A stretch of DNA of 64,000 nt from Paramarasmius palmivorus (lineage: Eukaryota > Basidiomycota > Agaricomycetes > Agaricales > Marasmiaceae): assembly GCA_037176845.1 (NCBI GenBank), contig JAYKXP010000071.1, positions 186,001 to 250,000 of the forward strand, read 5' to 3'. Below are positions 19,491-42,067 of this stretch, piece after piece; within the stretch, counting starts at the first letter, position 1, and each line of letters begins with the position of its first letter. The notes below the pieces were generated by a model. That model was given only the letters and a program-made list of their open reading frames with translations. It was not told the origin of the DNA and made no database searches. Both the position numbers and the translations under genes were made by a program.

Positions 19491-20072
19491 TTCTTCGTCA
19501 ACAACGGTCATCATCTCTCCTCGCTTTCGATGTCCTTCCGAGCTCTTGGGGGTTATAAATAAGTAGTCATCATGGTAATTACTACTGCGCTTCAACTTTA
19601 CTGAACTCGTATCAATATCACTAGCGCCTGTCGAACCACAAGCACCACCAAGTCGGATTCGGACTCCGAGGACCGAGTCCACCGCTCTACCTGATCCTTT
19701 TTCTACTGCACGGACCTATAACGCGTATCTCAATGACAAGTAGCTAATGATCGGAATTCATCTTGGTCATTTTCATCTTCCTAGGTGGCTTTTTGGACAG
19801 ATGACCTTGTCAGAAGCGTCAGGTCCGTCTTACACATTAACATGTTTGTTGACTTTTCTGTTGAGGTGTATGTTGTAGCTCCTCAAGACTGACGTGAGAT
19901 GCTCGACTCTCGGGCCGCGATACGCAATCTTGCTTGTGTATACTGGAATCGTACCTTGCCTTATCAACAGTTGCGCTGCATGAAGGATAACTATTGTCAG
20001 CGAAAATGATGCTTTCGCACCGTGGCTAACCAAAGTTCGACCTTGCGAGCGACGTTTGGCGTTGTCACTTTC

Positions 20073-20080
20073 TTATATAA
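20073..20080 (+). promoter_or_regulatory. TATA box of P450 paralogue 1
   Basis: TTATATAA, about 45 bases before ATG 20121. The same spacing is seen in the paralogues. Confidence 0.6.
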
Positions 20081-20120
20081 ACCTCAGCGCGTTTGGCATA
20101 CCCTTTTCACATTCACATCG

Positions 20121-22601
20121 ATGTTCAGAATGTTTCCAGCACTCACAAATTCCAACATCCTTCTGTGTATTCCACTTCTTGGGATCATATCGCTTTCAAC
20201 AGTACTATTCTTGGTTACTCGTTCTAAACGACGCTCTCTTCACTTCCTCCGAGGGCCTCCCAACACGTCTGTAATCCTTGGTACGTACTATGCATCCTTA
20301 TGCATCGTGGCCCTTCCGCTAAGACCTTATCGTTAGGCAACGAATATGATATGAACCAAGAGTTCGAAGTCAACGGTGGCTTAATGTTTCAACTGCTCCG
20401 AGAATACGGAGAAGCCTTTCGGGCAAAGACTCTCTTTAACGTACGACAAGTTTCCAGTTTTCATTCAGCAACATCGTGATTTACCCATTGACGTTAACAG
20501 GAAGACATGCTTGTTATTGCCGACTCCAAAGCTCTCCAACATGTTTTTCACAAGTCTTCGTACAAGTATCCCAAGTCTCCCGACTCAGATTTCATTACAT
20601 TTAGGATATTTGGACCTGGGATTGGCGCAGCGAAAGGTCGTCTTTTCAGCATCTCCCTATTGACTCCAGCTTTGACACATGAGATTTCAGGTGCAGCCCA
20701 CCAACGGCAGAGAAAGATCTTAAGCCCCGCATTCTCTCAGGCCCAAATCAAGCCCTTTGTCGGTATATTTCAAAAAATCACAACGTCGGTAGGTGACCTT
20801 AATTATCGCCCCTCACTTCCATACCCGTGCTTACTGTAAATATCAGCTTATAAGCCAATGGCGCGAACAGCTGACATCCGGGAATGGCATGGTCGACACC
20901 ACAAAATGGTTCCCAAATCTAACTTTGGATGCCCTTGGTGAAAGTATGTCATATTTTCATTTTGATTTTCGACCTGTGGCCTAAGTATCGTCGGCCATGT
21001 AGGTGTTTTCGACTTTGACTTCGGAGCACTCGAGTCTAAAAACAACCAATTGGCGTATATGGTGAAAAATCTATTGTGAGCCTTTTCTAATCTGTTTGGG
21101 TTTTGGGAGCTGAATGTCCTATGATAATCCAGTGTAGATTCCACTCGCCCGACACGTGCTCAATATCTCTGGAACCGCATACGTAGCCAATTCCTTCCGA
21201 AAACGATAGAGACTGTCCTTTCCGCCCTGTATGTCACAAAAGAAGACGCTCGTTGGAAAGCATGGCTCCAGGCGTCGCAGAGCGAAGCGAGCAAGTTGTA
21301 CAAGAACAAGCTGCAAGGACAGACATCAGAAGAGAACGATATTCTGGGTGTAATTTGTGAGTAACCGTGCCTGGCAATTCGAATCTCCATGCGCTTATGT
21401 CCCACTCAGCTAGGTCATTGGACGCGAAAGACCCTGAGAAGAGGATGGATGCTCAGGAGGCATTGTCACAGATGGCGTAGGCCCTCTCATAACGTGGAGT
21501 CCTGGATGTGGGAGTACTGACCGTGGCCACCGATAGCTCTATAATCCTAGCAGGCCACGACACCTCCGGAAACACGTACGTAGTACTTACCACGATATCC
21601 ACTACAGACAAGCTCACCTCGCACAGCCTTAGCTGGCTCTTCTACGAGCTGGCTTGCCACCCCGACGACCAACGCCGTCTATTCCAGGAGATTCAAGAGG
21701 CGAGAGAGCACAAAGGCGCCGAGCTGACTGCGACTGATTATGATGCGATGCCCTTCCTTAACGCCGTGATCAAAGTATGCTTTCCCCAGTTAGTCGTACA
21801 TCAGCACTACAGCTGACCGTATGGTATATCCAGGAAACGCTACGCTTGCACCCAATCGCGCTCCGCCTCATTCGCGAAGCTGAGGATGACGATGTTATAC
21901 CCCTTGCTCAGCCTGTAATGTCTACATCTGGCGAGATGATATCAGAAATTCCTATTGTGAAAGGTCAAAGGGTTATGGCTTCCATTATTGGTTATAACTA
22001 GTAAGCCGACAGTCTGTCTACCTTTACACACAGCGAGATGTCTCATCCAATTGTACAGCTCAAAGGCAGTATGGGGCGAAAACGCTGAAAAATGGGCTCC
22101 TGAGCGGCATTTGGATGCAAAGCGAACGACAACGTTGGGTGTTTTTGGCAACGTGTAAGTGCCGCTTCATAGTTTATTTCTAACCGCGCTGACAATGCAC
22201 AGAATGACCTTTAGTACGTCAACGAGCTGCCGCGTTCATGCCATGAATACTAATATATCACGAACCCTCAGGCGCTGGAGTCAGAGGCTGCATCGGGTGA
22301 GCATTTCATCGTTAATTGGTCAACTCTTCGACTGCTCAGCGCTTGATTCACTTTCAGCTGGCGATTCGCGTGAGTACAATCTACTTGCTACACCCAAAAA
22401 CAAAGCAAATACTCACACCGTAAATTAAGGGTACATGAACTGCAAACAGTGACTACGATGCTCGTTGAAGCCTTTGAGTTCTCTATGGATCCTGACTTAG
22501 ATATCATAATGATGGACTCGCCGGGTCCCATAGCACCTATGGTAAGAGGCAAGCTTGACGAGGGCGTCAAGATGCCCTTGATAGTCAAGGCTCGAGAGTA
22601 G
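20121..22601 (+). CDS. cytochrome P450, array paralogue 1 (cassette A)
   Basis: Haem-thiolate monooxygenase with an N-terminal membrane anchor (MFRMFPALTNSNILLC then LLGIISLSTVLFLV) and the array signature LRGPPNTS. About 16 exons splice in frame: NEYDMNQEFEV, EDMLVIADSKALQH, HQRQRKILSPAFSQAQIKP, WREQLTSGN, LWNRIRSQFLP, I-helix LAGHDTSGNT, K-helix ETLRLHP (ExxR), EDDDVIPLAQPV, and haem loop FSAGVRGCIGWRFA, with the Cys ligand. The stop is TAG 22599-22601. All motifs are intact. It is the P450 of the inverted cassette and is convergent with the F-box gene that ends 65 bases on. The family is a basidiomycete CYP group in the CYP4/CYP52-like clan; the substrate is unknown. Confidence 0.92.
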
Positions 22602-22665
22602 ATATGTTACAATTCTGCATGTAAAGCCATTGAGAATCTACAAGTACGCACATAAATATGCCATT

Positions 22666-24110
22666 CTACCTAATGCCGCACTCTGCGATCTTGAATAGGT
22701 TTCGCTCGCTACAAAGCGGGAAGGCCTGTTGTAGTAGGCCAAACCCATCACCACGGCATGCCATCATTGCCGAATGAAGATTTTCGGGAGTCGACATCGT
22801 GGTACCATCTGCTGAGGCTAGAAGTAATCCGATATACGATGGCTCCAAGCTCGTAAACACCACCTGAATTTCCTTCAAAGCTCGAAACAACGAATGAGTC
22901 GCCCAAACCCGATCCAACTTGTCCCATGAAAGTCTCGGGTTGGCTACAATCCATTCCCCTTCCGTCACCACAATCTTCGTAACCCTCGAACCACGGCAAG
23001 GTTCATCATCCGAATTCAACGGGTATATCCACCGAAAGAAGTCATCCGCCGATGAAATTGTGCCTTGTATCACAATCTCCCGAATTCGTGCGGTACAAAC
23101 GAAATCCTTCCAGGCGTTGAAATGTGATTGGTAACTCTGAAACAACTCCGAGAGATGTCCCTCCTCCCAGAGATCCAGATGACTCCGGGGAGCCGGTAAT
23201 TGGAATGTGCAGCGTCGGAGTGGATGGCTGGTAACCGTTGCACGTTTGGCTAGGAAAGACTGGAGGACTACCGTTGACTCCCTTAAAGGGAAGAAAGAAT
23301 AGAGCTCCTCCAACACTAAACAAGTCGCAAAGTATGCAAAGACCTGCGAACGATGAACGCCCTTCTGGCCGGAGACATCAAGCTGTTTCAAAGTGCTGGG
23401 AACCCAACGGTTCGCAACCAGACCCTCATCCTTCCCACCCCGGAACCAAACATCCCCTAGCACCAACTTCTCAAGTCGTACGAGAGGAGAGATTTGGGAA
23501 AGGTCCGATACCGCGTTCAAAGTCGTTTCTGTCACCGTTAACGTTTTGACATTACAGAATTCGGGTATCTGAGCGAGGTAGGTGAAGAATACCGACCATG
23601 CCAGACGTATATGGAGATTCGGTGAGCCGCGATTGTGCATTTGGTTTAGCTCTAGATGTGATAGGTTCCAGAACAACCGGCTTGCCATCGTAGTCTTTTT
23701 CTTTTTGGGCCCTTGAACTGAGAGGAGCCACAAAAAGAAGCTGCGTAGTGCCCAACACTCTTCTTGTTGGACTCCACCTATACCGAACACCTGGATCCCT
23801 GCGGCGTGAAGGGTAGAATGAGGATGTGAACATAAATCTATGAATCGATTCAAGGAGAGTGCAGTGGAATCGGGCTTTTGATAGAGGAAAACTTGTCGAA
23901 AGAGATGTGGTCGAGCAGTGAGACACCATGATCGAGAAACCAAGGAGCTAGTCTGCATGGAGGACATATCATCCTTTATACTGTCGATAATCTGCTCTAC
24001 GAGCTCAAGTGGGAGATGTCTGGAAGGTGTGGTACTCTCGAGCTGGAACATGAAGGATGAGTTAGGTAGACAAGGAGAAGAAAGAGACTCACAGTACTAT
24101 TCGTGCTCAT
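22666..24110 (-). CDS. F-box protein, cassette A
   Basis: Predicted substrate receptor of an SCF ubiquitin ligase. A six-codon first exon (24093-24110, MSTNST) is joined to 22666-24042, giving 464 residues. The N-terminal F-box reads HLPLELVEQIIDSIKDDMSS, SLVSRSWCLTARPHLFRQV. The rest carries weakly regular leucine-rich segments (LFWNLSHLELNQ, CNVKTLTVTETTLN, LEKLVLGDVWF, LKQLDVSGQ), as in F-box/LRR-like fungal proteins, and ends FPLCSERNLFKIAECGIR. The tiny first exon was chosen because both paralogues (31714 and 36957) have the same structure. It faces the P450 that ends at 22601. Confidence 0.88.
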
Positions 24111-24162
24111 AACTGATCTTGATACGCCGTACATGGTGGTGGAGGTGGTGGATAGCGGGATG

Positions 24163-24190
24163 TAAATGACACAGCCAGTCACTAGGCTGG
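24163..24190 (-). promoter_or_regulatory. conserved F-box promoter block, copy A
   Basis: On the minus strand this reads CCAGCCTAGTGACTGGCTGT followed by GTCATTTA, about 52 bases before the F-box start. Near-identical blocks precede the other two F-box copies. It may be a factor-binding site or core promoter. Confidence 0.5.
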
Positions 24191-24690
24191 CGTTCCCACA
24201 GATAGGTCTGTGCGCGTTCGAGTGTCATTAACGCGGCAACGATTGAATGGTTTCGAGAGTATGTAGACGCTCTTCTCGTTCTTTTCGTCATTCCCGGTTT
24301 CCAGGATCTGGCCAATGGCAACTACACGCCTTCCTCTATCCCGTCTCTGTCCTCTGCTCCCCAACCATGACGACAAAAAACCGCGCATCGTCGACCCTTC
24401 CGACCCAAGGTGCTTGTAGCCAGATTCCAGCTTTGTTCGAGGCTTCGAGTTGGATAAGTGTCTGAGGTATCGACGAACGGTGCAAGGAGATTCAGATTGG
24501 CGGGCTACGGGCTGGGATTGAATAGCAAAAACACAGCCGCCAACATTGGTTGGGTATCTCGAGTCCTATCATTGCACTTCAGCGGTGAGGTAGCACATGT
24601 ACAACCCAAATAGAGAAAATTGCCTCGTACGGGTAGTAGTTTCATTTCCAGTCAGTCGAGGCAAGTGCCGAGCAAGTGATTCTGAATGCT

Positions 24691-24992
24691 ATTCTTCTGG
24701 GCTAAATTAGCACAACGCCCGTACGTTACTCGAACACTGAAATGTGAAAGATGACTCACATTGTATGGAGAGATTCATTTGCAGGTCGAGCTATGGGCGC
24801 GTGTATAAGAGTCGGGAGGGGCTTAGGAATCGTTCACTCTTGAGCGCTTCATGTATTTCACACTGTCACAAGTATCAACTGGCCGACTAACTGAGACTCA
24901 GGCGTGCTAATATCATTTATACAATAAGAACTACAAGGAATTACGAGCACCGAGCCAGGGTAGAGTAAGTAGATGTGCAATGTTTCCTTTGA
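24691..24992 (+). repeat. local segmental duplication, copy 1
   Basis: Blocks GGGCTAAATTAGCACAACGC (near 24700) and GGAATTACGAGCACCGAGCC (24937) recur in the same order at 26900 and 27361. This copy lacks the 3' half of the tRNA and the following 150 bases or so. Confidence 0.7.
24881..24912 (+). pseudogene. tRNA-Ile relic (5' half only)
   Basis: GGCCGACTAACTGAGACTCA then GGCGTGCTAATA matches the 5' half of the tRNA-Ile at 27099 up to the AAT anticodon, with a deletion in the D-loop. No 3' half follows. It lies at the equivalent position of the duplicated block. Confidence 0.72.
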
Positions 24993-25114
24993 AAAATGGT
25001 ATCATCAACCGAGCATAGAATACCACTAGATATACAATAACCCTGACACTTCACATTTGATACCCAACAAGTTCAGTCTGGGATAGCATCAGTGTCTTCC
25101 TTTAATTATAAGAA

Positions 25115-25576
25115 TCAATGAACCAAGCACGTACTCTCAGCTCTTTTCACAACGCCTACACGCCTCCTCCCTTTCAAACTCCTGACGCCCCGAGGCCTTC
25201 TCCGACTAATCACCCTTCTCCTCCTACGACCCAAATCAGCCTGATCCAGCACCCCTCGAACCGTAGTCGCAGACACCGGCGGATCCACCATCCTCCCCAA
25301 CTCCTCCATACTCAAACGAGGATTCGCCTTTGCAGCCCTAATAAGAAGCCGCTTTGACCTCTCAGTCAACTTTGGCGGACGTCCACTACGTGGCCTATTA
25401 TGCGTCGAACCAGTCTTTTGAAACTTGTCCCAGATCTTTTTGGCTGTGCTGTATGGTATTCCGACCATTGTGGATGCAGCAAGGACAGTTTGGCCGGCTT
25501 GGATGGCTCCTATGAGCCTGTTCTTCTTGGGAGAGTCGTGTTGATGACGAGTAGAGGTAATGGTAGTACGAGCCAT
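25115..25576 (-). CDS. stand-alone Tc1/mariner-type helix-turn-helix protein (transposase N-terminal domain)
   Basis: A 153-residue frame starting MARTTITSTRHQ. Residues about 12-105 are the paired helix-turn-helix DNA-binding region of Tc1-like transposases: RLIGAIQAGQTVLAASTMVG, IPYSTAKKIWDKFQKTGST, RPRSGRPPKLTERSKR, ANPRLSMEELGRMV and SATTVRGVLDQADLGRR. A basic tail follows, and the stop comes before any DDE catalytic domain, so it cannot transpose by itself. No catalytic remnant or terminal inverted repeats were found nearby. A TATATA stretch lies about 45 bases upstream of ATG 25576. It is either a truncated element or an adopted DNA-binding protein. Confidence 0.75.
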   Translation of the reverse strand: MARTTITSTRHQHDSPKKNRLIGAIQAGQTVLAASTMVGIPYSTAKKIWDKFQKTGSTHNRPRSGRPPKLTERSKRLLIRAAKANPRLSMEELGRMVDPPVSATTVRGVLDQADLGRRRRRVISRRRPRGVRSLKGRRRVGVVKRAESTCLVH

Positions 25577-25620
25577 GGCGGAGGTAGTTGTAGTGTGCGT
25601 CGGAATAAGCCTAAGCCTTA

Positions 25621-25631
25621 GCCTATATATA
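25621..25631 (-). promoter_or_regulatory. TATA-like box of the helix-turn-helix gene
   Basis: On the minus strand the sequence reads TTATATATAGG, about 45 bases before ATG 25576, a normal core-promoter spacing for genes in this window. Confidence 0.45.
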
Positions 25632-25720
25632 AGACGAATTCGAGGTAAGGCGATTATGACATTTCGAGAACCATCAAGACTTTCACCTTTACATACAAGT
25701 TCTGACGTCAAAGTTTCCAC

Positions 25721-27098
25721 CGACCGTCAAGCGGGCCCGAGCTCGATTGTACAGTAAAAGCAAGATGATACTGACTAGAATACCGGCTCGTCAGTAAGAA
25801 CCATGGGCGGAGTTGGCTGTCAAACGCACCGGGTTGCCGTTAAACGTTAAAATCTTGCTGCCCCAGCTTGAAAGGTACTATCGGGAGTAACAGCAGTATT
25901 AGTGTCGCGAACGAGCCCAGTCAAACCGAAGCCTAATTCACCAGTTGAACACAAATCTCTGCCTCTCTATCCTCTCTTCCTTGTTAGTCCGCGTGCTTCT
26001 CCACCGAATCCCAATCGATGTACGTCCTTCATCCATGCGTGAATGCGATGCTTGGTTGGTAACAACGGCAGTCACAGGAAGCTGCAGAATCTGCACTGAC
26101 TGTGCATCATGCGGAGTAATCGTACGTGTGTATTCTCTTATCAAGCGCCGATGTCTGCCTAGGGGAGACTACTGGTGAAATGAAGGAAAAGACGAGAGTT
26201 TGCCGTCAAAACGTATTGGTAGGTCCATGTTGTGACGTTGGGCGCCCAGGCGAGGAGTCAAGATGTGAATGAACCACCGAATCTTGAGGAAGGTAGTCGG
26301 GAGTTGGGAGATGGTGTATCTTCCAAGGAAGGGACTCGGACTGTGGATTTCAAGATTTTCACGAGGACGACGGTGGATATAAGCTATTCTAGCAGGGGCG
26401 TTTTCAGCTTTGTTGCATCAAGAAGTGAGTGGGTCTCCTACCTTGAAGAGACCAGATCTCTGACTGGGATGAACCGCCTTGGTTTGAATTGGTAGTCCGA
26501 CTGAGTGCGATCTGGTGCCATTGAGAGACTGAAAACTGATTTTGCTTGGTTTTTTCGATCCTTGGTCTGTGAAACGCAGCTTCACTCCTCTTCCTAATCC
26601 TCGCTCCTCTTTTCAAATTTCAAACCACGAGACTTCTATCCATCCAACCCAGATTCGTGGTGACCGTTTTGGTGTGGACAATATAGGGCGTTCGGTTCAT
26701 GGCGACGTCGACATTTTGAGATGAGAATCCGGAATTGGGGCTTGAGTTAGGCAATGGGGGAACGGTCATTCGCCAAGTACTCTGTGTTGGCGTTACTTGT
26801 CAATATGGACCAGAAAAGCACAAGAATTGAGAACTTGCCTCACATGGGCGGATTCATTTTCCGTTGGCAGTCAGTCGAGGTCCGTTCTGGTCTTCTAGGC
26901 TAAATTAGTACAACGCCACCGCTCAAACCCTGAAAGATGACTCACGTCGTACGTAGAGATTAATTCGCGGATTGAACTACGGTGGATTACTAGTGTGGTC
27001 TAGTTGGAATTGGGGTTACTTGAGAGTGGGCGCTTAAGAGTCGTCGGTAAGGGTTCTCGGGCGCTTCAGATATAACACTTTGATACTTACCTTCCACT
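25721..27098. other. intergenic, ends in duplicated block
   Basis: No gene is seen in 25721-26830. From about 26850 it matches the 24640-24992 block. Confidence 0.5.
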
Positions 27099-27433
27099 GG
27101 CCGACTAGCTCAGTTGGTTAGAGCGTCGTGCTAATATGCCCTATAACGTAGTCGCTATATTAACGCGAAGGTCTTGGGTTCGATCCCCACGTTGGCCACT
27201 TCTAGTTGCGATCGGTGTCTTTTTGCGATAGAAAACGAAAAATCTTCCATTTCCAAACGCCGAGTCGGACAGATAATTTACACATAAAAAAACAGACAGA
27301 CAGACAAACAACAGTCACTAGGTAGAGTAAAGTAATACCGTCCCAGGATTCTAACTACACGGAATTACGAGCACCGAGCACCGAGCCAAAGTAGAGTAAG
27401 CAGTAACCGTAGATATACAATGTTTCCTTTCCT
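26885..27433 (+). repeat. local segmental duplication, copy 2 (with intact tRNA-Ile)
   Basis: Matches 24691-24992 in three ordered blocks, including TAGGCTAAATTAGTACAACG (near 26896), the tRNA, and GGAATTACGAGCACCGAGCA at 27361. This copy keeps the entire tRNA. Confidence 0.7.
27099..27198 (+). tRNA. tRNA-Ile (AAU), with a 26-base intron
   Basis: Acceptor stem GGCCGAC/GTTGGCC pairs with one G-T wobble. D-arm GCTCAGTTGGTTAGAGC; anticodon stem TCGTG/CGCGA; loop CT-AAT-A with the anticodon at 27133-27135; intron about 27137-27162 after position 37; TΨC arm TTGGGTTCGATCCCCA. A T-run (27222-27226) is the likely pol III terminator. Confidence 0.9.
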
Positions 27434-29819: not shown

Positions 29820-31646
29820 ATGGGAGATGCAAGTGAGATGCATAGGTACAGCGGTACCCGTTATCGTAAGGCCTAAGCGCCCCACAACAGCTCTGAGCTC
29901 CTCTCGCACATTCAATATTCAACGTTGCTAGCGTATACTCCCAGTAGTGAGTTCTCAAGTCTTTTTCCAGCCCATAAGGATACTAATGACCAACATAGGT
30001 GCTATACAACACGAGAGATACCTAGTAGTGCTTTCACCATTTCCGCGATTCGTATCGTTTTGAAATTCCCTCAATCGAGCTGGATAGTTATAGTTGTCGG
30101 AATGGAGATCGAGTTGGGTCGGAAAGGTAGATAGATTAGGGAGCAAACGAGAGAGAGAGCGAGGGAGAGAGGAAGGCTTGTCGACCATTCGAGGATCGAA
30201 AATTCACGCAAAAACCAGTCGTCAACATCGAGTCACGATAACTTGAACTTGAAAGCTTGTACTGGCACGACACTTTAGCATCCCGTAGCTCCGGCACCCA
30301 GGCGCTTCTCTTCTCCAGGCTGAAATCAGTCAAAAATCCAAAACGATGGTGTACAACACGAAGTCAAAGAATAGCCGACGCCGTGCGTGGTCCGTTTACA
30401 TCTTTTTCTATTCGAGCTAATATGTTGCTACTCTCAAGGCTATGTAACCCTGCTGCCCTACTCTTCCCGACGCTTCTTCATTTGTGCGAATACAAGAAAC
30501 GGCCAAGCCTTCAATGACGGCGAAACATTACATCAAGCTTCCTGATACAGCGAGCTCAAGGTTTCCGTCTGGAATCACCGAAACTGCAAGGTTGGTCCAA
30601 CCATGACCTCGTCCTTACCTCTGCAACATGACAGATCCTCAATAGCGCACATGCGTCTCAAAAATGGCTTGTTGTGAGCTGGCGTTATCTATACCATGGA
30701 CCAAACCTTTTGAGGACCCAAAATTGACACAAGACCAGCACTGCGACTACTACCCTAATTCGGAATAAATTACCTCCCATAATTATACATGCTCCCAATC
30801 TATCTCAATTCTCTACCTCTACCACGGAAGTTCTGTGAGCCTGGGATAGTGCTCACGCCACGACCACTGGAACCTCCTACATCTTCATTATCTTGTGTTT
30901 CAAAGTGACCGCCACGGAAATTTGCTGGGATGGATGGTCGGCTTGGTATCGGCAGTCGTGCTTAGGGTTGGATGAGAGAGGGATGCAGAGATTCGATGGT
31001 CGGGTCGCACAGGATTGGGCATGTCCCTATCATCACTGCCGTTGATCTCTCTCCAATGCAGATTCTCGATAACTGGTACCAGGAGTACGCTCACACCTGA
31101 GCCTCTGTGACTTGGTCATTCGAACGTCAAAAACGCCTCGAAGGTATGAGGATTACCTTTGTTCAAGTTGATCCAGCAGAGCTGAAAGAGCCTCTGCTAG
31201 AACGCGCATCGGCAATCATCCTCTCATGCTTCCACTCTGCTGCTACTGCGGAGGTTTTGTCAGCCCGGCTGTGGTATAGGACAGAGTTCCGCGTATTAGG
31301 ACTGGTCACAATGCAACGTTGAACGTTTGACCTCTATATTGAGCACCGCTGGTGCACAATGTCGACCTCCTCGAACTTCTTGTGATAAGCTTCGACATCG
31401 GGTGTACTGCGGCGAGAGTTCCGCTTGCATCTATCTTATACCATCCCGGTGTTAGCAACGTTTCGTGGTGGCAAGAGGATGGAAGAGACATTCGACCTTG
31501 ACTTGCTAGTAGTGGAGAGTTGGGTGAAACGTTCGTCGTTGAACAGTACCTGTCGGCATTCACACTGCTCGATTTCGTTGCGGGCGCTTATCGTTGTCCA
31601 CGCTAATTCCACACGAGGCTTGTCATGTGCGGGATATGTGAGAAAA
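29820..31646. other. 1.8 kb without a supported gene
   Basis: Several frames of 60-85 codons on both strands, none with a recognisable domain. The last few hundred bases are F-box cassette B upstream sequence. Confidence 0.45.
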
Positions 31647-31673
31647 CCAGCCTAGTAACCGGCTGTGTCTTTT
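31647..31673 (+). promoter_or_regulatory. conserved F-box promoter block, copy B
   Basis: CCAGCCTAGTAACCGGCTGT then GTCTTTT, 40 bases before the F-box ATG. Same block as at 24163 and 36893. Confidence 0.5.
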
Positions 31674-31713
31674 GCACCCTGCTATCTACCACCACGACGT
31701 ATCGATAGCAGCT

Positions 31714-33141
31714 ATGATTGCGAACACTACTGTGAGCCTCGTTTTCTCTCTTTCTCGCAATATCTCATTCTTCGTCTTCCAGCCCGAAGGTACCATGCCT
31801 GCCGGATATCTACCACCTGAGATCATGCAATACATCATCGACAACATAAAAGATGACATGTCCGCGATGCAGAGATGTTCATTGGTTTCCCATTCGTGGT
31901 GCCTCACTGCTCGGCCATATCTCTTTCGAAATGTTATCCTGGGTCGGAAACCTATTTCCGTCATACTTGCCTTGAATCAGTTCATGGAACTATGCTCGCA
32001 CCCTCATTCTACCCTTCACACCGCAGGGATTCAGGTTTTTGGGATAGGCGGGGTAGTAGACGAGGAGTGTTGGGGATTAAACCACTTCTTTTTATGGCTC
32101 CTTTCAGTCGGGCCCGGAGGAGTCACCGACACTACGATGGCGAGCCGCCTGTTTTGGAATTTAGATCAATTACAGCTAAATCAGCTACAAGGCCTACCGG
32201 GTTTCCATGCATGGTCGCTGTTCTTCACCCATCTCGCTCGGGTTCCCGAGTTCTGTAACGTCAGAGTATTGACGGTGACAGGGGCTCACTTGAGCGCGGA
32301 GGCAGACTTTCACGACCTCGCACCTCTTCGGAATATCGAAAGGTTGATATTGGGGGATGTCACGTTTGGAGTGGACGCTTCGGACCGCTGGATTCCCAGC
32401 AAACTCAGACAACTCGACCTCTCGGGTCAGAGAGCTCGCTCGCTGTCCTTTTCATACTTTTCCTCGTGTGCAACATTGCAGGAGCTTTGCGTCACCTTCA
32501 ATTGGAGTGAATCGAGCGACCTTCAATCCTTTCTAACCGAGAGTGCAGCCGTGAGAAGTGGTTCACTCCAATGCTGCATACTCAAATTATCGATGCGGGC
32601 GCGGCACCGGCGTCGGCATTCGCTCCATTTTGACCGCAATCAACTTGAACCACAAAGGGTTGTTTGTACTACACGGGTTCCCGAGATTGTAGTAGAAGGC
32701 ACGGTTTCTTTGGTGAACGAGTTTTTCCGATGGACGTACAATCAGGATCCTGGCGTTAGCCCTATACCTTGGAAGCCGAAGGTTACAAAGATTGTATTGA
32801 CAGACGGTGAACAGGTTGTGGGACAAAAAGCATGGGACAACCTGGATTGCGTTTGGACGACTCATTTGTTGTTTCGCTCGTTGAAGGAAATCAGGGTAGA
32901 GTTTATGAGCCTGGAGTTTTCTTACCTTTGTGGGCTTTCGTGTTCAGAAGATGGGAACAAGACGCCGACTCCTCGAAGCACTCGTTCGGCGATGATGGCG
33001 TCACAGGGCAATGGGGCTGGCCTACTACAGGAGACACTGCCGCTTTGTAGCGAGCGAAATCTGCTGAAGGTTTCAAAGCAGGACATTAAATATCCATTTA
33101 GTGTTGGAATGTCGGTGGAATTCGATCCACGATTTATGTAG
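31714..33141 (+). CDS. F-box protein, cassette B (C-terminally extended)
   Basis: SCF-type substrate receptor paralogue. First exon 31714-31731 (MIANTT), intron 31732-31782, second exon 31783-33141; 458 residues. F-box: YLPPEIMQYIIDNIKDDMSA, CSLVSHSWCLTARPYLFRNV; then leucine-rich-like segments (LFWNLDQLQLNQL, CNVRVLTVTGAHL, LRQLDLSGQ). Unlike the other two copies, which end at SKQGIR or AECGIR, the ancestral stop is lost and the frame runs on for about 16 residues (YPFSVGMSVEFDPRFM). The stop then falls 9 bases from the stop of the convergent P450. Confidence 0.88.
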   Translation: MIANTTVSLVFSLSRNISFFVFQPEGTMPAGYLPPEIMQYIIDNIKDDMSAMQRCSLVSHSWCLTARPYLFRNVILGRKPISVILALNQFMELCSHPHSTLHTAGIQVFGIGGVVDEECWGLNHFFLWLLSVGPGGVTDTTMASRLFWNLDQLQLNQLQGLPGFHAWSLFFTHLARVPEFCNVRVLTVTGAHLSAEADFHDLAPLRNIERLILGDVTFGVDASDRWIPSKLRQLDLSGQRARSLSFSYFSSCATLQELCVTFNWSESSDLQSFLTESAAVRSGSLQCCILKLSMRARHRRRHSLHFDRNQLEPQRVVCTTRVPEIVVEGTVSLVNEFFRWTYNQDPGVSPIPWKPKVTKIVLTDGEQVVGQKAWDNLDCVWTTHLLFRSLKEIRVEFMSLEFSYLCGLSCSEDGNKTPTPRSTRSAMMASQGNGAGLLQETLPLCSERNLLKVSKQDIKYPFSVGMSVEFDPRFM

Positions 33142-33150
33142 TACAGATTA

Positions 33151-35577
33151 CTACATCGAATTGTACTCTCGTATCTTAACTGTTAAAGGTAGTTGAAAGC
33201 CCTCCTTGAGCTTGTCTCTCACCGCAGGCGCTACGAATCCTGCATCGACCATCATGATATCCAATGCGGGATCGATGGAGAACTCGAAAGATTCAACCAA
33301 CATCGCGGTGACCGTTTGCATTTCGTGCACCCTGAAATTGCGTTAGCTTATATCACTGGATGATTGTTTGGAATAGAACTGACGCAAACCGCCAGCTATC
33401 GCAATCATGAATGAGTGAACGGTTATAGCTTCAAGTCGTAGACACGTACCCAATGCAACTTCTCACGCCAGCACCTATTACGTTGTCAGTTAGGATTCGA
33501 GTGATGCGGCTTCGTGTTGACTCACTAAAGGTCATCCTGTAGTAGAGTGCAAGTACCGTCAGAAATGACGAAAAAAGGTGTTGATTCTAGTGCTCACAAG
33601 TTCCCAAAAACCCCCAAAGTTGTCGTCCTCTTTGCATCCAAGTGGCGGGCGGGGTTCCATTCCTCGGCGTCCGCTCCCCATACCGCCTTCGAGCTGCCCA
33701 GTACAGTGAGTAATCTAGTTAAATGTAAACGGCATTTGCCTCACTAGTTGTATCCAATGATGGAGACAATAACCCTTTGACCTTTTGTGATGGGAATTTC
33801 CGACAGGATCTCGCCAGATGTGGACATGACTGGCTGAGCAAGAGGTAGAACATCATCATCCTCGACTTCACGGATGATTCGAAGTATGATCGGGTGTAAA
33901 CGAAGAGTTTCCTGGGTTCCGATATACCATGAGGTCAGCAGTGCGTATACAACTGGCGGACAGGTCTATACCTTTATCACAGCGTTGAGGAAGGGCATTG
34001 CATCGTAATCGCCGGCTGCCAATTCGCCCTTGCGCTCTCTAGCTTCTTGAACTTCGTGGAATAGACGGCGTTGATGGTCGGGGTTCCGGGATAGTTCATA
34101 GAAGAGCCAGGTAAGGCTGGGATAGGTGAGCTTGCTAGAAACATTGCGCTGAGCGGTATACGCACGTATTTCCAGAGGTTTCGTGGCCTGCTAGAATTAT
34201 GGTGCTATAGGTGGCGACTTTCAGTGTTCACGTCCATGAGCGTGTTTAGAGGAGCCTACGCCATCTGTGATAACGCCTCCTGGGCGTCCATCCTCTTCTC
34301 CGGATCTTGCGATTCCAATGATCTAGCTATGGGGATCCATAAGCAATGGAAACCTCGAAATGAGTAGAGTTACTCACAAATGACGCCAAGGATATCATTT
34401 TCTTCCGACGTCTGGCCTTGCAACTTGTTCTTATACAACTCCCTTGCCTCGCTTTGCGATGCCTCCAACCATGCCTTCCAACGAGCATCTTCCTTGGTAA
34501 CGTATAGTGCAGAAACAACCTTCTCTATCGCTTTCGGAAGGAAATGGCTGCGTATGCGATTCCATAGGAATCGAGCCTTTGTCGGACGAACGGAATCAAC
34601 ACTGTTCAATAAGATCTAAGTTCTGTAGTCCAGCGATAGATTGTTAAAGAGCACTTACAACAGGTTTCGCACCATGTATGCTAGCTGATTGTTTCTGGAC
34701 CCGAGTGCTCCGAACTCATAGTCAAACACGGCTGCGCAGAAACTCAGGCATCAGATCATTGATCAAAAAGGAGTCTCACTTTCACCGAGAGCATCCAAAG
34801 TGAGATGTGCAAAATACTTGGTCACATCGAACACTTCATTTCCAGACATCAGCTGTTCGCGCCATTGATTTATGAGCTTGGAAGTAAGCATTAGCACGGG
34901 TATGAAACGGGGTCCCGCCAAAGACATCACTCACCGATATTGTGACTTTCTGGAATATGCCAACGAAGGGTTTAATTTGAGCTTGAGAGAAAGCGGGATT
35001 CAATATCTTTCTTTGGCGTTGGTGGGTTGCGGCTGGTATCCCGTCTTTCAGACCCGGAATGTTGAGAAAGAGAGTAAATGGGTACCTTGTACGGTAATAA
35101 CACCAGGTCCGAAAACTTTGTTGCCCATATATTGCGAGTCGAGGGACTTCGGGTATTTATATGAAGATTTGTGGAAGATATGTTGAAGGGCCTTGGAATC
35201 GGCAACGACAAGTATGTCCTCCTGTGTGTCGATAGGTGAATCACGAAGGGAATAGACAGCAACAAGAGATTTCATACGTTGAACACCGTTTTGGCACGAA
35301 AAGCTTCTCCGTATTCTCGCAGCCACTGGAACATCAGCCCAGCTTTGATTTCAAACTGTTGGTCCAAGTCATATTCGTTTCCTAATCACGAGGTTGTCAG
35401 CACAGCCCAGACGATTAAATGAAAAGTCTAGTACGCACCGAGCAATATAGACGTGTTAGGAGGTCCTCGTAGAAAGTGCAGAGAACGTCTCCTTGAGCAA
35501 ATCACAAGGAATACCGTGAGCAATAGGACGAGGAGTGGGATATATAGAAAAGCGCTTGTAAGGGGTAAGAAACCCAT
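33151..35577 (-). CDS. cytochrome P450, array paralogue 2 (cassette B)
   Basis: Starts at 35577 (MGFLPLTSAFLYIPLLVLLL), anchor then SRRRSLHFLRGPPNTS. The multi-exon frame gives FRAKTVFN, EDILVVADSKALQH, HQRQRKILNPAFSQAQIKP, LWNRIRSHFLPK, I-helix LAGHETSGNT, ETLRLHP, EDDDVLPLAQPV, WGADAEEWNP and haem loop FSAGVRSCIGWRFA. The end differs from its paralogues: where they have RE then a stop, this one reads REYNSM with TAG at 33151-33153, because the stop codon became TAC. All catalytic motifs are intact. It is closest to paralogue 3 at 38415-40846. Confidence 0.9.
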
Positions 35578-36892
35578 GCTGAATGTAGAAGTATACAAAA
35601 AAACTTACCCGTAAAGTGGGGTATATATACGATAAGTCTCTAACGCCAAACGCCACAAGAGGCGGCGAGCTTTGTCTTCCACACGGCGCGAAAACGTTAT
35701 ATTTGCTGACCGTATATATGATTTGCGAAACTCGACTTTTGGTAGCCGAGGGAAGGTAAGAATCTAGTCTACACGAGCAAGATTGTGTTCCACGGCCCGA
35801 TGGGAGTGGCTCCCCTCAATGTCGAGAAGCTGAGGCACACGCAGATGCTTCTGAAAGGCCATCTGTCAAGCAGAGAGATTAACCTAGGGAACTGTTAGTG
35901 ATAAAGAATTCCGGTTACTCGAGATTACAAACATGAAAAAGTGTTCTGTCATTGAGATACACGTCACATGCGTAGTGGCCAGCACAATTACCAGAGTGCC
36001 GACTCGGAGCCGAGCCGCTCGGATTAGTTTCTGTCCAGTGTCTGGTTTGATATGCGGGGAGAATTTGAGGGAATCAAAGATAGGTCATGGTGCATGACAC
36101 TGATGGCCGTTGAAGGGAAAGATGTTCTTGTTAGACGCCCGACGCGATCAAAAATTTCTTTTTCCTTTTCCCACCAGATCTGCACGCTAATTCTCTCATC
36201 CTCCTCAGTGGTACTGAGTCTAAACGTTTAACTTAAACTCTGAACGCAATCTCCACTGCTCGATGACACCAAAGGGGACATACCCAACCAATGTGGGTAG
36301 TGTTTTTATTATTCCCTCACTGACAGCTCATGGCTCTGCACGGCGCACAAATCAAAATTCTTCCAATTCCGAGTCGTCCGAGTCATTCTAACGATTACAG
36401 TCAGTGACTGGATTTTACACGCACTGCAAATCCTCGGTCTGGAGGTTGCCGCTACCACAAGAGCCCCTACAGTGCGATTGTTCCTCATATGCCATAAGCG
36501 ATTACCACGAACACTGTTTGCTGGCAGAACGATGCTACCAACACAGATGCTTCTGCTCTGCCACTAAAGTTTCGAGAGTTGCGTACAGTCGTGGTCACGG
36601 CGGCCTGTTCAACGTCCGAGCACACGCATAGCGTTCCATCTACACCAAAAAGCGATGTGGCAAAGAGAACTCGATTTGCATCCACCGTATCCTTGGCACC
36701 TTCTCCGTTGTTTAAGGTGCTTCATCGCCTTGAGGAAGACTTTGGCCAGCTAGCAGTGAATGGTAGTAGAGTTGGGTGAGCTGGGATAGGACAGAGTTGA
36801 GCGGTTCGATACAACGCGATCTTTGTTCTTGATCCACGCTAATTCCACTCGAACATGCACGAGCCTTGTCATGTGCAGGATATGTGGGAAAG
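35578..36892. other. intergenic between cassettes B and C
   Basis: 35578-36020 is the P450 5' flank, repeated with changes at 40847-41330 (shared blocks include GAATTCCGGTTACTCGAGAT against GGATTCCGGTTACTCGAGAT). The rest shows no gene. Confidence 0.55.
35622..35629 (-). promoter_or_regulatory. TATA box of P450 paralogue 2
   Basis: TATATATA in the context GTATATATACCCC on the minus strand, about 45 bases before the start at 35577. Confidence 0.55.
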
Positions 36893-36919
36893 CCAGCTTA
36901 GTGACCGGCTGTGTCATTT
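36893..36919 (+). promoter_or_regulatory. conserved F-box promoter block, copy C
   Basis: CCAGCTTAGTGACCGGCTGT then GTCATTT, 37 bases before the F-box ATG. Confidence 0.5.
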
Positions 36920-36956
36920 GCACCCTGCAATCCACCACCACGTATCGATATCGGTT

Positions 36957-38372
36957 ATGATTGCAAACAAGACAGTGAGTCTCATTTCTCTCCTTCTCTC
37001 TCCTTCTCATTGTTTCGTCCAGCTCGAATGTACGATACCTTCCGGGTACCTCCCACCTGAGCTCCTGGAATGCATCATCAAGAGCGTAAAAGATGACATG
37101 TCATCGTTGAAGAGCTGTTCGCTGGTCTCCCGTTCATGGTGTTTCGCTACTCGGCCATATCTCTTCCGACAACTATTCCTCGATCAGAAACCCGAGTCTG
37201 CTGCAATCTCCTTGAACCAGTTCATGGAATTATGCTCGCATCCTCATTCTACCCTTCATACCGCAGGGATCCGAGTTTTTAGCGTATGTGGCGAGATGGA
37301 TTGCTGGATATTAAACAATTTATTCATCTGGCTCCTCTCAGCCAAACACGCCACGATGACGATGGCGAGCCGATTGTTTTGGAACCTGGAACACCTACAG
37401 CTGAACCAGATGCATAACAACGGTCCGCCGGGCTTTCGTGCATGGTCATTGTTCTTGGCTCATCTCGTCCAGATCCCCGAGTTTTGTGGTGTCAAAGCGT
37501 TGACAGTGACAGAAACACGCTTGAACACCGAGTCGGATTTTCGTGACCTCGTTCCTCTTCATAACCTGGAGAGGCTGGCCCTGGATGTCGCATTCGAGGA
37601 AGGAGACGATGGGAACCTGGGGGCTCAGGCTCCGAACATTGACCACTGGATCCCTGGCAATCTCAAACAGCTTGACGTCTCTGGCCAAGAAGAGAGTCAT
37701 CGTTCGCGGATCCTTTCATATTTTGCCAAGTGCCGCACGTTACAGGAACTTCGTGTTCCCCTTATTTGGCAGGAGACAGAGGATAGTATCCAGGGATTTC
37801 TAGTCACGAACACAGCCGTGAGAGGCAGTCTGCTGCAATGCTGTACGTTCAGACTACCAGAGCCACCTCCGATTCAGGTCAGGTTGCGATATCATTGGGG
37901 ACACTGCTATGTAACCCAAATTATCACCTGGAGGAATCTCGTGTGTACTACACAAGCCCGCGAGATCACTGTAGAAGGCCCAATCTCCTCGATGAGCGAC
38001 TTTTTCTGGTGGACATACCGTATGGCTCCTGGTAATAATTCGGTATCTCGTAGCTCCAAGGTCACGAAGATTGTGGTGACGGATGGTGAAAGGGTTGCAA
38101 AGTCATCCCAGTGGGCCAGTCTGGACCGCGTTTGGACGAACCATTGGTTATTTCGTTCCCTGAAGGAGATTCAGGTGGAGTTTACAAGCTTGGACCCTTC
38201 GCAAATCGGAAGACTTCTATCCTCAGTTGATGGTACTATGACGCCGACTCCTGAAAGTACCCGTTCAGCAATGATGGCATGCCAGGGTGACGGGTCTGGG
38301 CTGCTACAAGCCGCGTTCCCACTTTGCCGCGAACGAAACCTATTGAAGGTTTCAAAGCAGGGCATTAGGTAG
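36957..38372 (+). CDS. F-box protein, cassette C
   Basis: SCF-type substrate receptor paralogue, 455 residues: first exon 36957-36974 (MIANKT), intron 36975-37022, second exon 37023-38372. F-box: YLPPELLECIIKSVKDDMSS, CSLVSRSWCFATRPYLFRQL. Leucine-rich-like repeats follow (LFWNLEHLQLNQ, VKALTVTETRLN, LERLALDVAFEE, LKQLDVSGQ), ending FPLCRERNLLKVSKQGIR. It has the ancestral C-terminus, 42 bases before the convergent P450 stop. The copies differ most in the middle of the LRR-like part (for example around 37560-37640), the part expected to bind substrate. Confidence 0.88.
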   Translation: MIANKTVSLISLLLSPSHCFVQLECTIPSGYLPPELLECIIKSVKDDMSSLKSCSLVSRSWCFATRPYLFRQLFLDQKPESAAISLNQFMELCSHPHSTLHTAGIRVFSVCGEMDCWILNNLFIWLLSAKHATMTMASRLFWNLEHLQLNQMHNNGPPGFRAWSLFLAHLVQIPEFCGVKALTVTETRLNTESDFRDLVPLHNLERLALDVAFEEGDDGNLGAQAPNIDHWIPGNLKQLDVSGQEESHRSRILSYFAKCRTLQELRVPLIWQETEDSIQGFLVTNTAVRGSLLQCCTFRLPEPPPIQVRLRYHWGHCYVTQIITWRNLVCTTQAREITVEGPISSMSDFFWWTYRMAPGNNSVSRSSKVTKIVVTDGERVAKSSQWASLDRVWTNHWLFRSLKEIQVEFTSLDPSQIGRLLSSVDGTMTPTPESTRSAMMACQGDGSGLLQAAFPLCRERNLLKVSKQGIR

Positions 38373-38414
38373 AATATCGTATTTAGTAGATTATCAGTGA
38401 TTTCACATACAAAA

Positions 38415-40846
38415 TTACTCCCGTATCTTCAGTTTTAATGGTAGCTGGAAGCCCTCCTTGAGCCTGTCTCTCACCATAGGCGCTACGAATCCTGCATCAA
38501 CCATCATGATATCCAACGAAGGATCGATGGAGAACTCGAAAGATTCAACCAACATCGCGGTGACCGTTTGCATTTCGTGTACCCTGGAATTGTGTTAGCT
38601 TGGATTACTTTAACGCCTTGAAGTAGGACTCACGCAAACCGCCAGCTGCCAGAATTGATGAATGAGCGAATGATCAAACATATAGTATCTAAACACGTAC
38701 CCAATGCAACTTCTCACGCCAGCACCTATAGGGTCATCAGTTAGCATTCGAGTAACGCGGCTTCGTATGACTTACTAAAGGACATTCTATGTGAACACAA
38801 GCATTATTAGAAAGGGTTAGATCGAAGCTACATAAGTGCAAAGCTCACAAGTTCCCAAAGACTCCTAACGTCGTTGTCCTCTTTGCATCCAAATGACGTG
38901 CAGGATTCCATTCCTCAGCATCTTCTCCCCATACTGCCTTCGAGCTGTCCAACGGAATGAGCAATCCCACCAAGTGTGAAGGATAGGCGGCTTACTAGTT
39001 GTATCCGATGATAGAGACCATAACCCGCTGGCCTTTCGTGACAGGAATCTCCGTTAGCATCTCGCCAGATGTGGATACGACAGGTTGAGCAAGAGGTATA
39101 ACATCGTCATCCTCAGCTTCCCGAATGAGACGGAGTACGATTGGGTGTAAACGAAGGGTTTCCTGGATTCCGATATTCCGTGAGGTCAAAGGCGCGCGTA
39201 AAACTGGCAAACGGGACCATACCTTGATCACGGCATTGAGGAAGGGCATGGCATCGTAGTCACTCGCTGTCAACTCGCCCTTGTGCTCTCTAGCTTCTTG
39301 GATCTCTCGGAATAGACGGCGTTGGTCGTCGGGGTTCCGGGATAGTTCATAGAAGAGCCAGGTAAGGCTGGGATAGGTGAGCTTGTCGGCGACATTCGGG
39401 CTAAGTGGTATACGCACGTATTTCCGGAGGTTTCGTGGCCTGCTAGGATTATGGTGCTATAAGCGGCTACTGTCAGTACTCTCACATCCATGAGCGTGTA
39501 TGGAGGAGCCTACGCCATCTGTGACAATGCCTCCTGAGCATCCATCCTCTTCTCCGGATCCTGCGACTCCAATGATCTAGCTATGGGGATCCATAAGCTC
39601 TGGAAACCTCGAAATGGGTAAAATTACTCACAAATGACACCAAGGATATCATTTTCCTCCGATGTCTGACCTTGCAACTTGTTCTTATACAACTTCTTTG
39701 CCTCACTTTGCGACGCCTGGAGCCATGCTTTCCAACGAGCATCTTCTTTAGTAACGTATAGTTTGGAGAGAGATTTCTCTATTGCTTTCGGAAGGAAATG
39801 GCTGCGTATGCGATTCCATAGATATCGGACCTTTGTCGGACGAACGGAATCAACGCTGTTCAATGACATCTAAGATTTATGGCCTAAAGATGGATTGTTG
39901 GAAAGAACTTACAATAAATTTCGGACCATGTATGCCAGCTGATTGTTTTTGGATTCGAGTGCTCCAAAGTCATAGTCAAAGACAGCTACCCAAAAACTCA
40001 GACATGAGATCATTGAGGAAAAAGGAGCCTCACTTTCACCGAGAGCATCCAAAGTAAGATTCGAAAAGTATTTGGTTGCGTCGATAACTTCGATTCCGGA
40101 CGCCAACTGTTCGCGCCATTGATTTATGAGCTTAGAATTGACCGTTAGCCCGCCTATGGAAGTGAAGTCCCACCAAGACCATCATTTACCGACATCGTAA
40201 CTTTCTGGAATATGCCAACGAAGGGTTTAATCTGAGCTTGAGAAAAGGCGGGGTTTAGAATCTTCCTTTGGCGTTGGTGAACTGGGGCTACAATTTCTGA
40301 ATTCAGATCCGGAAAGGCCGAGGATGACGATGGACAAGTACCTTGCACGGTAGCAACACCAGGCCCGAAGATTTTCGTAGAAGCATATGTCGAGTCGGTA
40401 GACTTTGGGTATCTGTATGAGGATTTGTGGAAGATGTGTTGAAGAGCCTTGGAATCGGCAACGACGATCATATCCTCCTGTTTGACGTCGACACATAAAT
40501 CACGAAGGGAACGAGCAAGAACGAGCAGGCTCTCATACGTTGAACACCGTTTTGGCACGAAACACTTCTCCATATTCTCGCAGCCACTGAAACATCAGTC
40601 CAGCCTTGATTTCAAACTGTTGGGTCAAGTCATATTCGGTTCCTAAAGGCAAGATTGTCAGTGAAGCCCAAAAGGGAAATGGGGAGTCCAGCCTGAGTAC
40701 GCACCGAGCAATACTGAGGTGTTAGGAGGTCCTCGTAGGAAGTTAAGAGAACGCCGCCTTGAACGAACAACGAAGAATATCGAGAGTGATAGGAAGAGGA
40801 GCGGAATATATAGAAAGACGCCTGAAAGGAGGGGTAAGAAACCCAT
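38415..40846 (-). CDS. cytochrome P450, array paralogue 3 (cassette C)
   Basis: Starts at 40846 (MGFLPLLSGVFLYIPLLFLS) with SRRRSLNFLRGPPNTS; the stop is TAA at 38415-38417 after KLKIRE. After splicing it shows EDMIVVADSKALQH, HQRQRKILNPAFSQAQIKP, LWNRIRSHFLPKAIEKS, I-helix LAGHETSGNT, ETLRLHP, EDDDVIPLAQPV and the haem loop FSAGVRSCIGWRFA. The 11-base exon (AATGTCCTTTA) before the haem exon is present. It is very close to paralogue 2; both have the same MGFLPL start, so they arose by the same 5-kb duplication. Catalytically intact as read. Confidence 0.9.
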
Positions 40847-42067
40847 GTTGAATGTAGAAGTATACAAAAAACATACCTGTGAAGTGGGGTATATATACTA
40901 GAAGCCCCTAACGCCAAACGCCGCACAAGGAGGTGAACCTTTTTGAAACCACGGCGCGAAAACGTCATTTTTGCTGACCATATAGATGATTCGCGAAAAT
41001 CGACTATTGGTAGGGAAAGGTAAGAACCCAGTCTACACAAAGCAAGATTGCGTTTCGCACAGCTATCGGGGGCCGAGAGGAGTGTCTCACGTCAACCTTG
41101 AGAAGCTGGAGCACGCGCAGTCAACAAAAAAAGCTATCAAGAAGGTTGTGATGAGATGAACCTTATGCTTCTGACTAGGTCATCTGTCAGGCAAGAAAAG
41201 GAACCTAGGAAATTATGAATGCTGAAGGATTCCGGTTACTCGAGATTACTTACATGAAAGAGCATCCTGTCATTGAGATAAACGTCACAGTGTAGTGGCC
41301 GGCACAGTTACCAGAGTGCCAGGTAAAGTGGTGCCGGCGGTGCCATTGCGGTTCTTTAGGAGGTGATAACGAAAGCTCCGAACGTGAAACGGTTTCAGCC
41401 AGATTTTGCGACGGCTCGAGGGAGAGCCAGTCAGGTTTAGGACGGGAAATACGGTACGCTTGAGCCGACCCAGAAATCAGTTAGACGCAATCAGCTTGCG
41501 AACGAAAACCTTACGAGATATCGATAAAAATATCACTTCTGGGGTTCAAATAGGAGTGTGGCCCTTGTGGCCCCATTGGGTTGGTTTCTGTCAGGCTTGA
41601 TATGCTCCGATTTGGGGAGAAGCTGAGGGAATCAAAGATAGGTGAGTAGACCATGATGCATGATGTATGATGGCCGTTGAAAGGAAAGATGTTAGACGCC
41701 CGATGCTCTCGTTAACCACCACCACCACAAACTGGTAGGCAATTGTCAATCACAGTGCGTGCACAAAGGAGACTCACATCTAAGCATGATTGGGAAGCTC
41801 AATACATTCGTCAACAGGATGAGGATGGAATTGCGAGATCGGTTTTTACAAGCTGGGTCTCCGCGTAGTACGTGGCATTTGGTTCTTAAGCAGAAGAGTT
41901 AGCTCACATCGTACCATTGACAGAAGAAGGGCCTCGTCTTGGGTTGCTTTCCATAGCAGTGGTACCGTCGAAATATAATGAAGATGAACGATAGCTGCTG
42001 AAAGGGAAGGCTCGGTATATGGCTATCTGGTATGTGTCATAGAATCCAACTTGGACCCAAATTCTAA
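40847..42067. other. intergenic, duplicated P450 upstream region
   Basis: 40847-41330 repeats the region upstream of P450 paralogue 2. 41330-42067 holds no gene I can support. Confidence 0.5.
40890..40897 (-). promoter_or_regulatory. TATA box of P450 paralogue 3
   Basis: TATATATA in the context GTATATATACCCC on the minus strand, about 44 bases before the start at 40846, the same context as in paralogue 2. Confidence 0.55.

What the first reader, a model, noticed from the sequence alone, without database searches (positions are those of the whole stretch)
19785..41330. A two-gene cassette, F-box facing P450, present three times
The same convergent pair (F-box gene and P450, stops 9-65 bases apart) occurs inverted at about 19.8-24.2 kb and as direct neighbours at about 31.6-36.0 and 36.8-41.3 kb. 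The conserved F-box promoter block and P450 upstream blocks (for example the AGGTCATCTGTC motif near 19810, inverted, and 41180) show that whole units were copied, not single genes. A P450 duplicated together with a putative ubiquitin-ligase receptor is not a known cluster type to me. Possible meanings are control of P450 turnover or a shared regulated locus, or simply co-duplication by chance.
Basis: partly seen in the sequence, partly recalled or inferred. Interest (0 to 1): 0.75.

Follow-up and report, generated by a model that had tools for sequence, protein, structure and literature searches.

The report
Triplicated F-box and P450 gene pair
In a mushroom-forming fungus, a neighbouring pair of genes (a cytochrome P450 enzyme and a predicted F-box protein facing it) occurs as three intact copies of one segment; the pairing most likely began as chance neighbours in a genome rich in both gene types, and nothing found shows that one protein controls the other.

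Summary
Window = Paramarasmius palmivorus (Marasmiaceae). Three ~4.4-kb units, one inverted, each carry an intact convergent pair: an F-box gene (464/458/455 aa) and a 16-exon P450, stops 64, 9 and 42 nt apart. Similarity runs on through both upstream regions, so whole segments were copied. Only three genes of this F-box subfamily were found in the assembly, all in these units.

The functional reading is not supported. Among 193 F-box and 135 P450 places listed in this genome, an F-box match lies within 3 kb of a P450 match three times (these units), against 2.3 expected from uniform placement. The nearby array of four P450s lacks this F-box; two relatives elsewhere face an MFS gene and an unrelated F-box. 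The upstream regions share no 7-base word in all six genes. The halves have different histories: the P450s of units 2 and 3 are sisters (dS 0.54), while their F-box genes are as far apart (dS 1.15) as either is from unit 1, with the break on the convergent 3' ends. Likely gene conversion homogenised the P450 side.

Verdict: co-duplicated neighbours, ordinary in kind, with an interesting recombination boundary. Related species could not be read for synteny.

The parts
19778..24203 (-). Unit 1 (inverted): convergent P450 and F-box with both upstream regions
   Evidence: BLAST extent against units 2 and 3
20130..22601 (+). P1, P450 gene of unit 1, 16 exons, 539 aa, open (an in-frame ATG at 20121 is an alternative start)
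   Evidence: spliced alignment; Pfam p450 219.6 bits
22666..24110 (-). FB1, F-box/LRR-like gene of unit 1, 464 aa, one 50-nt intron
   Evidence: no Pfam match of its own, F-box by homology to FB3
31597..36000 (+). Unit 2
31714..33141 (+). FB2, F-box/LRR-like gene of unit 2, 458 aa, one 51-nt intron
   Evidence: Pfam F-box-like 20.1 bits, below the 24.3 cut-off
33151..35577 (-). P2, P450 gene of unit 2, 16 exons, open
   Evidence: ends; junctions
36833..41320 (+). Unit 3
36957..38372 (+). FB3, F-box/LRR-like gene of unit 3, 455 aa, one 48-nt intron
   Evidence: Pfam F-box-like 27.0 bits, above the cut-off
38415..40846 (-). P3, P450 gene of unit 3, 16 exons, open; public protein VNI00_013732
38345..38444 (.). 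Likely recombination boundary: F-box side star-like, P450 side U2+U3 sisters
   Evidence: best break 38424, likelihood ratio 78.7, two-unit support range 38345-38444; 0 of 2000 shuffles reach the chi-square
36850..36956 (+). Conserved block upstream of FB3 (equivalents upstream of FB1 and FB2)
   Evidence: 63 of 86 gap-free columns identical in all three units; alignment
40847..41320 (-). Conserved block upstream of P3 with TATA box at -51 and AGGTCATCTGTC
47718..60855 (+). Array of four more P450s of the same family (PA 47718-50162, PB 51256-53688, PC 54605-57072, PD 58427-60855), no unit-type F-box

Best explanation
The three units are copies of one segment in which a predicted F-box/LRR gene and a P450 gene lie tail to tail, most likely as chance neighbours, and the P450 halves of units 2 and 3 were then likely homogenised by gene conversion while the F-box halves diverged. 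Shown: three segment copies, both genes open in each, dN/dS well below 1 for both, and a sharp change of history at the convergent 3' ends. Inferred: one founding adjacency by chance in a genome with many genes of both types; duplication in inverted and in tandem orientation; conversion between the two directly repeated P450s (about 5.25 kb apart) that stopped near the stop codons. Predicted and untested: each F-box protein would be a substrate receptor of an SCF ubiquitin ligase, the three perhaps with different targets, and the P450s would be membrane-anchored monooxygenases of closely similar activity. No evidence ties the F-box targets to the P450s.
For: Continuous homology through upstream regions. 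Open genes; dN/dS 0.26-0.33 for the three F-box pairs and 0.09-0.13 for the three unit P450 pairs. Only three members of the F-box subfamily found in the assembly, all in the units. F-box matches within 3 kb of a P450 match: 3 (the units) against 2.3 expected among 193 and 135 merged places (which corrects by one P450 place). 0 of 27 other F-box loci (27 of the 46 other rows) hold a P450 of this family, and 0 of 15 other P450 places (11 elsewhere, 4 in the array) hold the unit F-box, in the short stretches held. P1-P3 form one clade with 100/100 support, P2+P3 99/98. Sites U2=U3/U1=U3/U1=U2: F-box gene 190/186/171, P450 gene 460/192/162, P450 upstream 96/36/18. dS U2/U3: F-box 1.15 [0.92-1.56], P450 0.54 [0.45-0.66].
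Against: Three open pairs kept side by side at dS of about 1 is what selection on the pair would also give. Within 6 kb, 5 of 6 F-box/P450 neighbours in the genome list are on this one contig (6 of 7 with the weak F-box-like start at window 63401), and one of them is a P450 of the same clade facing an F-box gene unrelated in sequence, stops about 404 nt apart; a chance account must call this an F-box-rich neighbourhood. Counts are lower bounds (150 of 880 F-box and 92 of 774 P450 candidates scored) and the null is crude. Conversion is inferred, not seen: the first 70 codon columns of the F-box pair FB2/FB3 have dS 0.53 [0.30-0.82], like the P450s, and the F-box upstream, exon 1 and intron show a weak sister signal (23 of 45 sites, p 0.016), which fits replacement of the rest of the F-box gene better.
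Confidence: 0.65

Rival explanations
1. Enzyme with its own turnover receptor: each F-box protein would recruit the neighbouring P450 to an SCF ligase, and the pair is kept together by selection.
Confidence: 0.08
2. Shared regulated locus: the pair forms a co-expressed unit, or the overlapping 3' ends make each transcript an antisense brake on the other.
For: Stops 9, 42 and 64 nt apart mean that ordinary 3' UTRs would overlap; both upstream blocks are conserved.
Against: The unit P450 genes have a TATA box 51-56 nt upstream, the F-box genes none in 450 nt; no 7-base word is shared by all six upstream regions, and 3 shared 6-base words compare with 1.3 in the null (131 of 1000 as many). The stop distances are not conserved.
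Confidence: 0.12
3. Same co-duplication, other second step: the F-box half of unit 2 or 3 was replaced by another, now lost, F-box paralogue, or halves were re-paired by unequal crossing-over among more units.
For: F-box upstream, exon 1 and intron show a U2+U3 sister signal (23 of 45 sites, p 0.016) and the first 70 codon columns have dS 0.53, unlike the rest of the gene.
Against: No further F-box paralogue of the subfamily or relic was found in the assembly. Site patterns in the first part of exon 2 (37023-37310) show no sister signal, 35/30/33.
Confidence: 0.25

Closest known systems
Tandem duplication of enriched basidiomycete P450 families (PMC3899305; abstract and passages seen)
   Same: Same-family P450s in tandem with the same exon structure, ascribed there to tandem duplication
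   Different: Here three of seven copies carry a second, unrelated gene along
F-box/LRR (FBXL-type) SCF receptors
   Same: F-box-like N-terminus in FB3 and an alpha/beta repeat fold resembling FBXL17, FBXL2 and SKP2 entries
   Different: Own sequence subfamily with a CSHPHST signature, seen only here and, with at most one change, in three M. roreri proteins; no Skp1 test
Large F-box sets of mushroom-forming fungi (210 F-box genes annotated in Flammulina filiformis, PMC7567395, passages seen)
   Same: Many F-box genes in the genome (149 Pfam matches over the cut-off, a lower bound)
   Different: This subfamily is small (3) and tied to one locus
F-box genes listed in predicted gene clusters of Hypholoma fasciculare (PMC8181146, passages seen)
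   Same: F-box genes near metabolic genes, once in a 98-kb cluster that also holds a P450
   Different: No adjacent or co-duplicated F-box/P450 pair is described in the passages
Mosaics from gene conversion between tandem copies (general knowledge)
   Same: Adjacent direct repeats share one stretch more closely than the rest
   Different: The boundary falls on the tail-to-tail junction of two genes

Membership tests
F-box/LRR SCF receptor (FBXL type) | F-box domain at the N-terminus | tested here: inconclusive
   FB3 27.0 bits passes the 24.3 cut-off, FB2 20.1 does not, FB1 no match; FB1 and FB2 align to FB3 over the F-box
F-box/LRR SCF receptor (FBXL type) | leucine-rich-repeat solenoid after the F-box | tested here: inconclusive
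F-box/LRR SCF receptor (FBXL type) | binding to Skp1 and a substrate | not testable with these tools
   needs experiment
Cytochrome P450 | Pfam p450 match, heme-binding FxxGxRxCxG, ExxR, I-helix AGxxT (motifs recalled) | tested here: met
   219.6 bits for P1, the one unit P450 scanned, PF00067 precomputed for P3; FSAGVRGCIG or FSAGVRSCIG, ETLR, AGHDTS or AGHETS in the three models
CYP5136-like family | 13 to 15 introns (PMC3899305 passage) and family-level identity | tested here: inconclusive
   15 introns in all seven models; three of the 120 listed relatives are named PAH-inducible PC-PAH 1, one of them partial (P0037, P0064, P0097); no named CYP5136 sequence was compared
Secondary-metabolite gene cluster | core synthase with co-regulated tailoring genes | not tested
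   only 10 further window ORFs were scanned: two FMN oxidoreductase pieces and an NmrA-like piece, no core synthase; no expression data
Conserved enzyme/degrader gene pair | pair kept as neighbours across species | tested here: inconclusive
   contig lengths of M. roreri rows argue weakly against it; no related genome could be read

The most novel reading that the evidence does not exclude
A constant-enzyme, variable-receptor locus: recombination keeps the P450 half uniform while the attached F-box receptor diversifies, so that each unit pairs the same chemistry with a different ubiquitin-ligase specificity, perhaps one that senses or destroys targets of the P450's pathway.
Probability: 0.09. 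Interest if true: 0.75.

Novelty: new member of a known kind. Interest (0 to 1): 0.3.

Why it matters
It shows how a second gene can ride along in a P450 expansion and look like a cluster. It also gives a clean test case: three copies in which one half stays uniform in two of them and the other half diverges, with the boundary on the tail-to-tail junction. If the F-box proteins did act on the P450s it would be an unexpected way for fungi to control P450 levels.

Tried and rejected
Rejected: similarity limited to coding parts (one search shows continuous blocks). Rejected: a general F-box/P450 association in this genome (places copied by hand: all 149 F-box rows and 44 of 49, the other 5 being repeats; 92 of 113 P450 rows and 43 of 133, the rest left out as further exons or repeats; one search had missed one P450 place). 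The weak F-box-like start at window 63401 was in neither list; with it the 6-kb count is 7 against 4.6. Rejected: shared promoter words. Considered: a higher mutation rate on the F-box side; its dS to unit 1 (1.03-1.04) is not above that of the P450s (1.30-1.55). The tree holds 7 window models and 19 of the 120 listed proteins, chosen by hand; four public proteins of the array were left out as the same genes. The best two-break model adds a strongly shared stretch at 38424-38580 (38/5/3; extra likelihood ratio 13.7). A flank of 1.5 kb around a short F-box match does not always reach past that gene, so the 0 of 27 is weak for some loci. Led nowhere: PDB sequence search with the F-box alignment (0 matches); NCBIfam on FB1 and FB3 (0); nine paper searches (listings with abstract starts) and passages of five papers showed no such pair. 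Synteny in related fungi could not be tested: no collection with fungal contigs was open to me. NG86 dS values near or above 1 are rough.

Full report
Where it is. The window is G000:C71:186001-250000 of a 68.3-Mb assembly of 393 contigs. Proteins from a contig of the same length are public as Paramarasmius palmivorus (VNI00_ numbers), a member of Marasmiaceae, Agaricales.

The observation. Three units share continuous similarity: unit 1 at 19.78-24.20 kb, inverted; unit 2 at 31.60-36.00 kb; unit 3 at 36.83-41.32 kb. Each holds a convergent F-box and P450 gene with stops 64, 9 and 42 nt apart. The F-box genes encode 464, 458 and 455 aa with one intron of 50, 51 and 48 nt after the sixth codon. 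The P450 genes have 16 exons with shared junctions, including tiny exons of 11, 25 and 12 nt around the heme-binding loop; the spliced P3 protein, with one junction set by eye, equals VNI00_013732. All six genes are open.

What was copied. Upstream of the F-box start about 100 nt align at 78-88%, better than most of the F-box coding region; the P450 upstream regions align for about 220 to 470 nt before the start, depending on the pair. So segments, not single genes, were duplicated. No fourth copy of the F-box gene or of the P450 upstream block was found in the assembly.

Relatives. Four more P450s of the family stand in a tandem array at 47.7-60.9 kb without this F-box. In a tree of 26 P450s (7 window models and 19 chosen of 120 listed proteins) the three unit P450s are one clade (100/100) with P2 and P3 as sisters (99/98), and no M. 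roreri sequence falls inside. For the F-box proteins the next matches in this genome are 26-30% identical over about 260-420 residues; short matches to the F-box region reach 41%. A search of 5.8 billion proteins, limited to proteins that share short words, gave three M. roreri proteins of 26-28% identity in the alignment (P0002, P0003, P0124; local matches cover about 60% of the query) and four weaker rows that cover 9-28%. The M. roreri proteins share FIDLCSHPHST or one change of it; the core motif was not found in the 27 other F-box loci.

Is the pairing more than chance? I compared F-box and P450 match places in the whole assembly: after merging 193 and 135, F-box matches within 3 kb of a P450 match number three, the units themselves, against 2.3 expected from uniform placement; within 6 kb 6 against 4.5, and within 10 kb 9 against 7.5. 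One founding adjacency is thus unremarkable. But 5 of the 6 within 6 kb are on this contig. P450s of the same clade elsewhere face other genes: on C29 an MFS gene, on C71 near 285 kb an F-box gene of an unrelated subfamily, stops about 404 nt apart. The latter is a fourth F-box/P450 tail-to-tail pair on this contig and is explained only by an F-box-rich neighbourhood (four F-box matches at C71:262.7-283.0 kb).

Different histories of the halves. For units 2 and 3 the synonymous distance is 1.15 [0.92-1.56] for the F-box genes and 0.54 [0.45-0.66] for the P450 genes; to unit 1 both halves lie at about 1.0-1.55. Site patterns (U2=U3/U1=U3/U1=U2) say the same: no sister signal in the F-box gene (190/186/171), a strong one in the P450 gene (460/192/162), in its introns (204/86/81) and in its upstream region (96/36/18). 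The best single break is at 38424 of unit 3 with support from 38345 to 38444, astride the F-box stop (38372) and the P450 stop (38415); likelihood ratio 78.7, 0 of 2000 shuffles reach the chi-square. The likeliest cause is gene conversion between the neighbouring P450s. Against this, the first 70 codon columns of FB2/FB3 have dS 0.53 [0.30-0.82] and the F-box upstream, exon 1 and intron a weak sister signal (23 of 45, p 0.016), so replacement of the rest of an F-box gene, or re-pairing of halves, is not excluded; the site patterns at 37023-37310 (35/30/33) do not show that signal.

What the proteins do. The P450s carry the expected catalytic signatures (motifs recalled). The F-box proteins are predicted SCF receptors with a repeat fold like LRR proteins, F-box/LRR receptors among them (model pLDDT 68, pTM 0.71, F-box region poorly modelled); only FB3 passes the Pfam cut-off. 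Their middle part is the most variable (45% aa identity in the two pairs examined), which suggests different targets. Conserved P450s beside faster-changing F-box proteins is not what one expects of a receptor that must keep binding that P450; this is an inference.

Control. The unit P450 genes have TATA boxes 51-56 nt upstream, the F-box genes none in 450 nt, and no word of seven bases is common to all six upstream regions. Overlapping 3' ends would follow from the short stop distances but need transcript data.

Verdict. The sharp break at the gene junction is the one feature that deserves follow-up.

Noticed in passing
window 47718-60855: Four tandem 16-exon P450s of the same family as the unit P450s, open in the models; PC needs two GC donors.
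   Followed up: yes
L072 2049-3737 and L059 (C71:282548-287194): Another P450 of the clade (start not resolved) faces a 562-codon F-box frame of an unrelated subfamily, stops about 404 nt apart.
   Followed up: partly
window 27099-27198 (+) and 29719-29819 (-): Two intron-bearing tRNA genes, 86% identical and in mirror orientation, lie between units 1 and 2; ARAGORN with its bacterial setting did not list them.
   Followed up: partly
window 24693-24990 and 26891-27430: Two short direct repeats (72-73%) in the same spacer, around the tRNA gene in the second copy.
   Followed up: no
window 25115-25726 (-): A single frame of 203 codons with a Tc1/mariner-type transposase helix-turn-helix (HTH_32, HTH_Tnp_Tc3_2, both just under cut-off); no catalytic part looked for.
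   Followed up: no
window 12061-15069: Two neighbouring NADH:flavin oxidoreductase (Oxidored_FMN) genes.
   Followed up: no
window 63401-63535 (+): A weak F-box-like start (16.7 bits, below cut-off) beyond the P450 array; not in the genome-wide list.
   Followed up: partly
C40 and C72 of G000: P450 and F-box matches recur at an offset of about 611 bases with the same scores on both contigs, as if they were two haplotypes of one region.
   Followed up: no
window 33118-33153: In unit 2 both frames run past the stop positions of the other units into the spacer, leaving 9 nt between the stops.
   Followed up: partly
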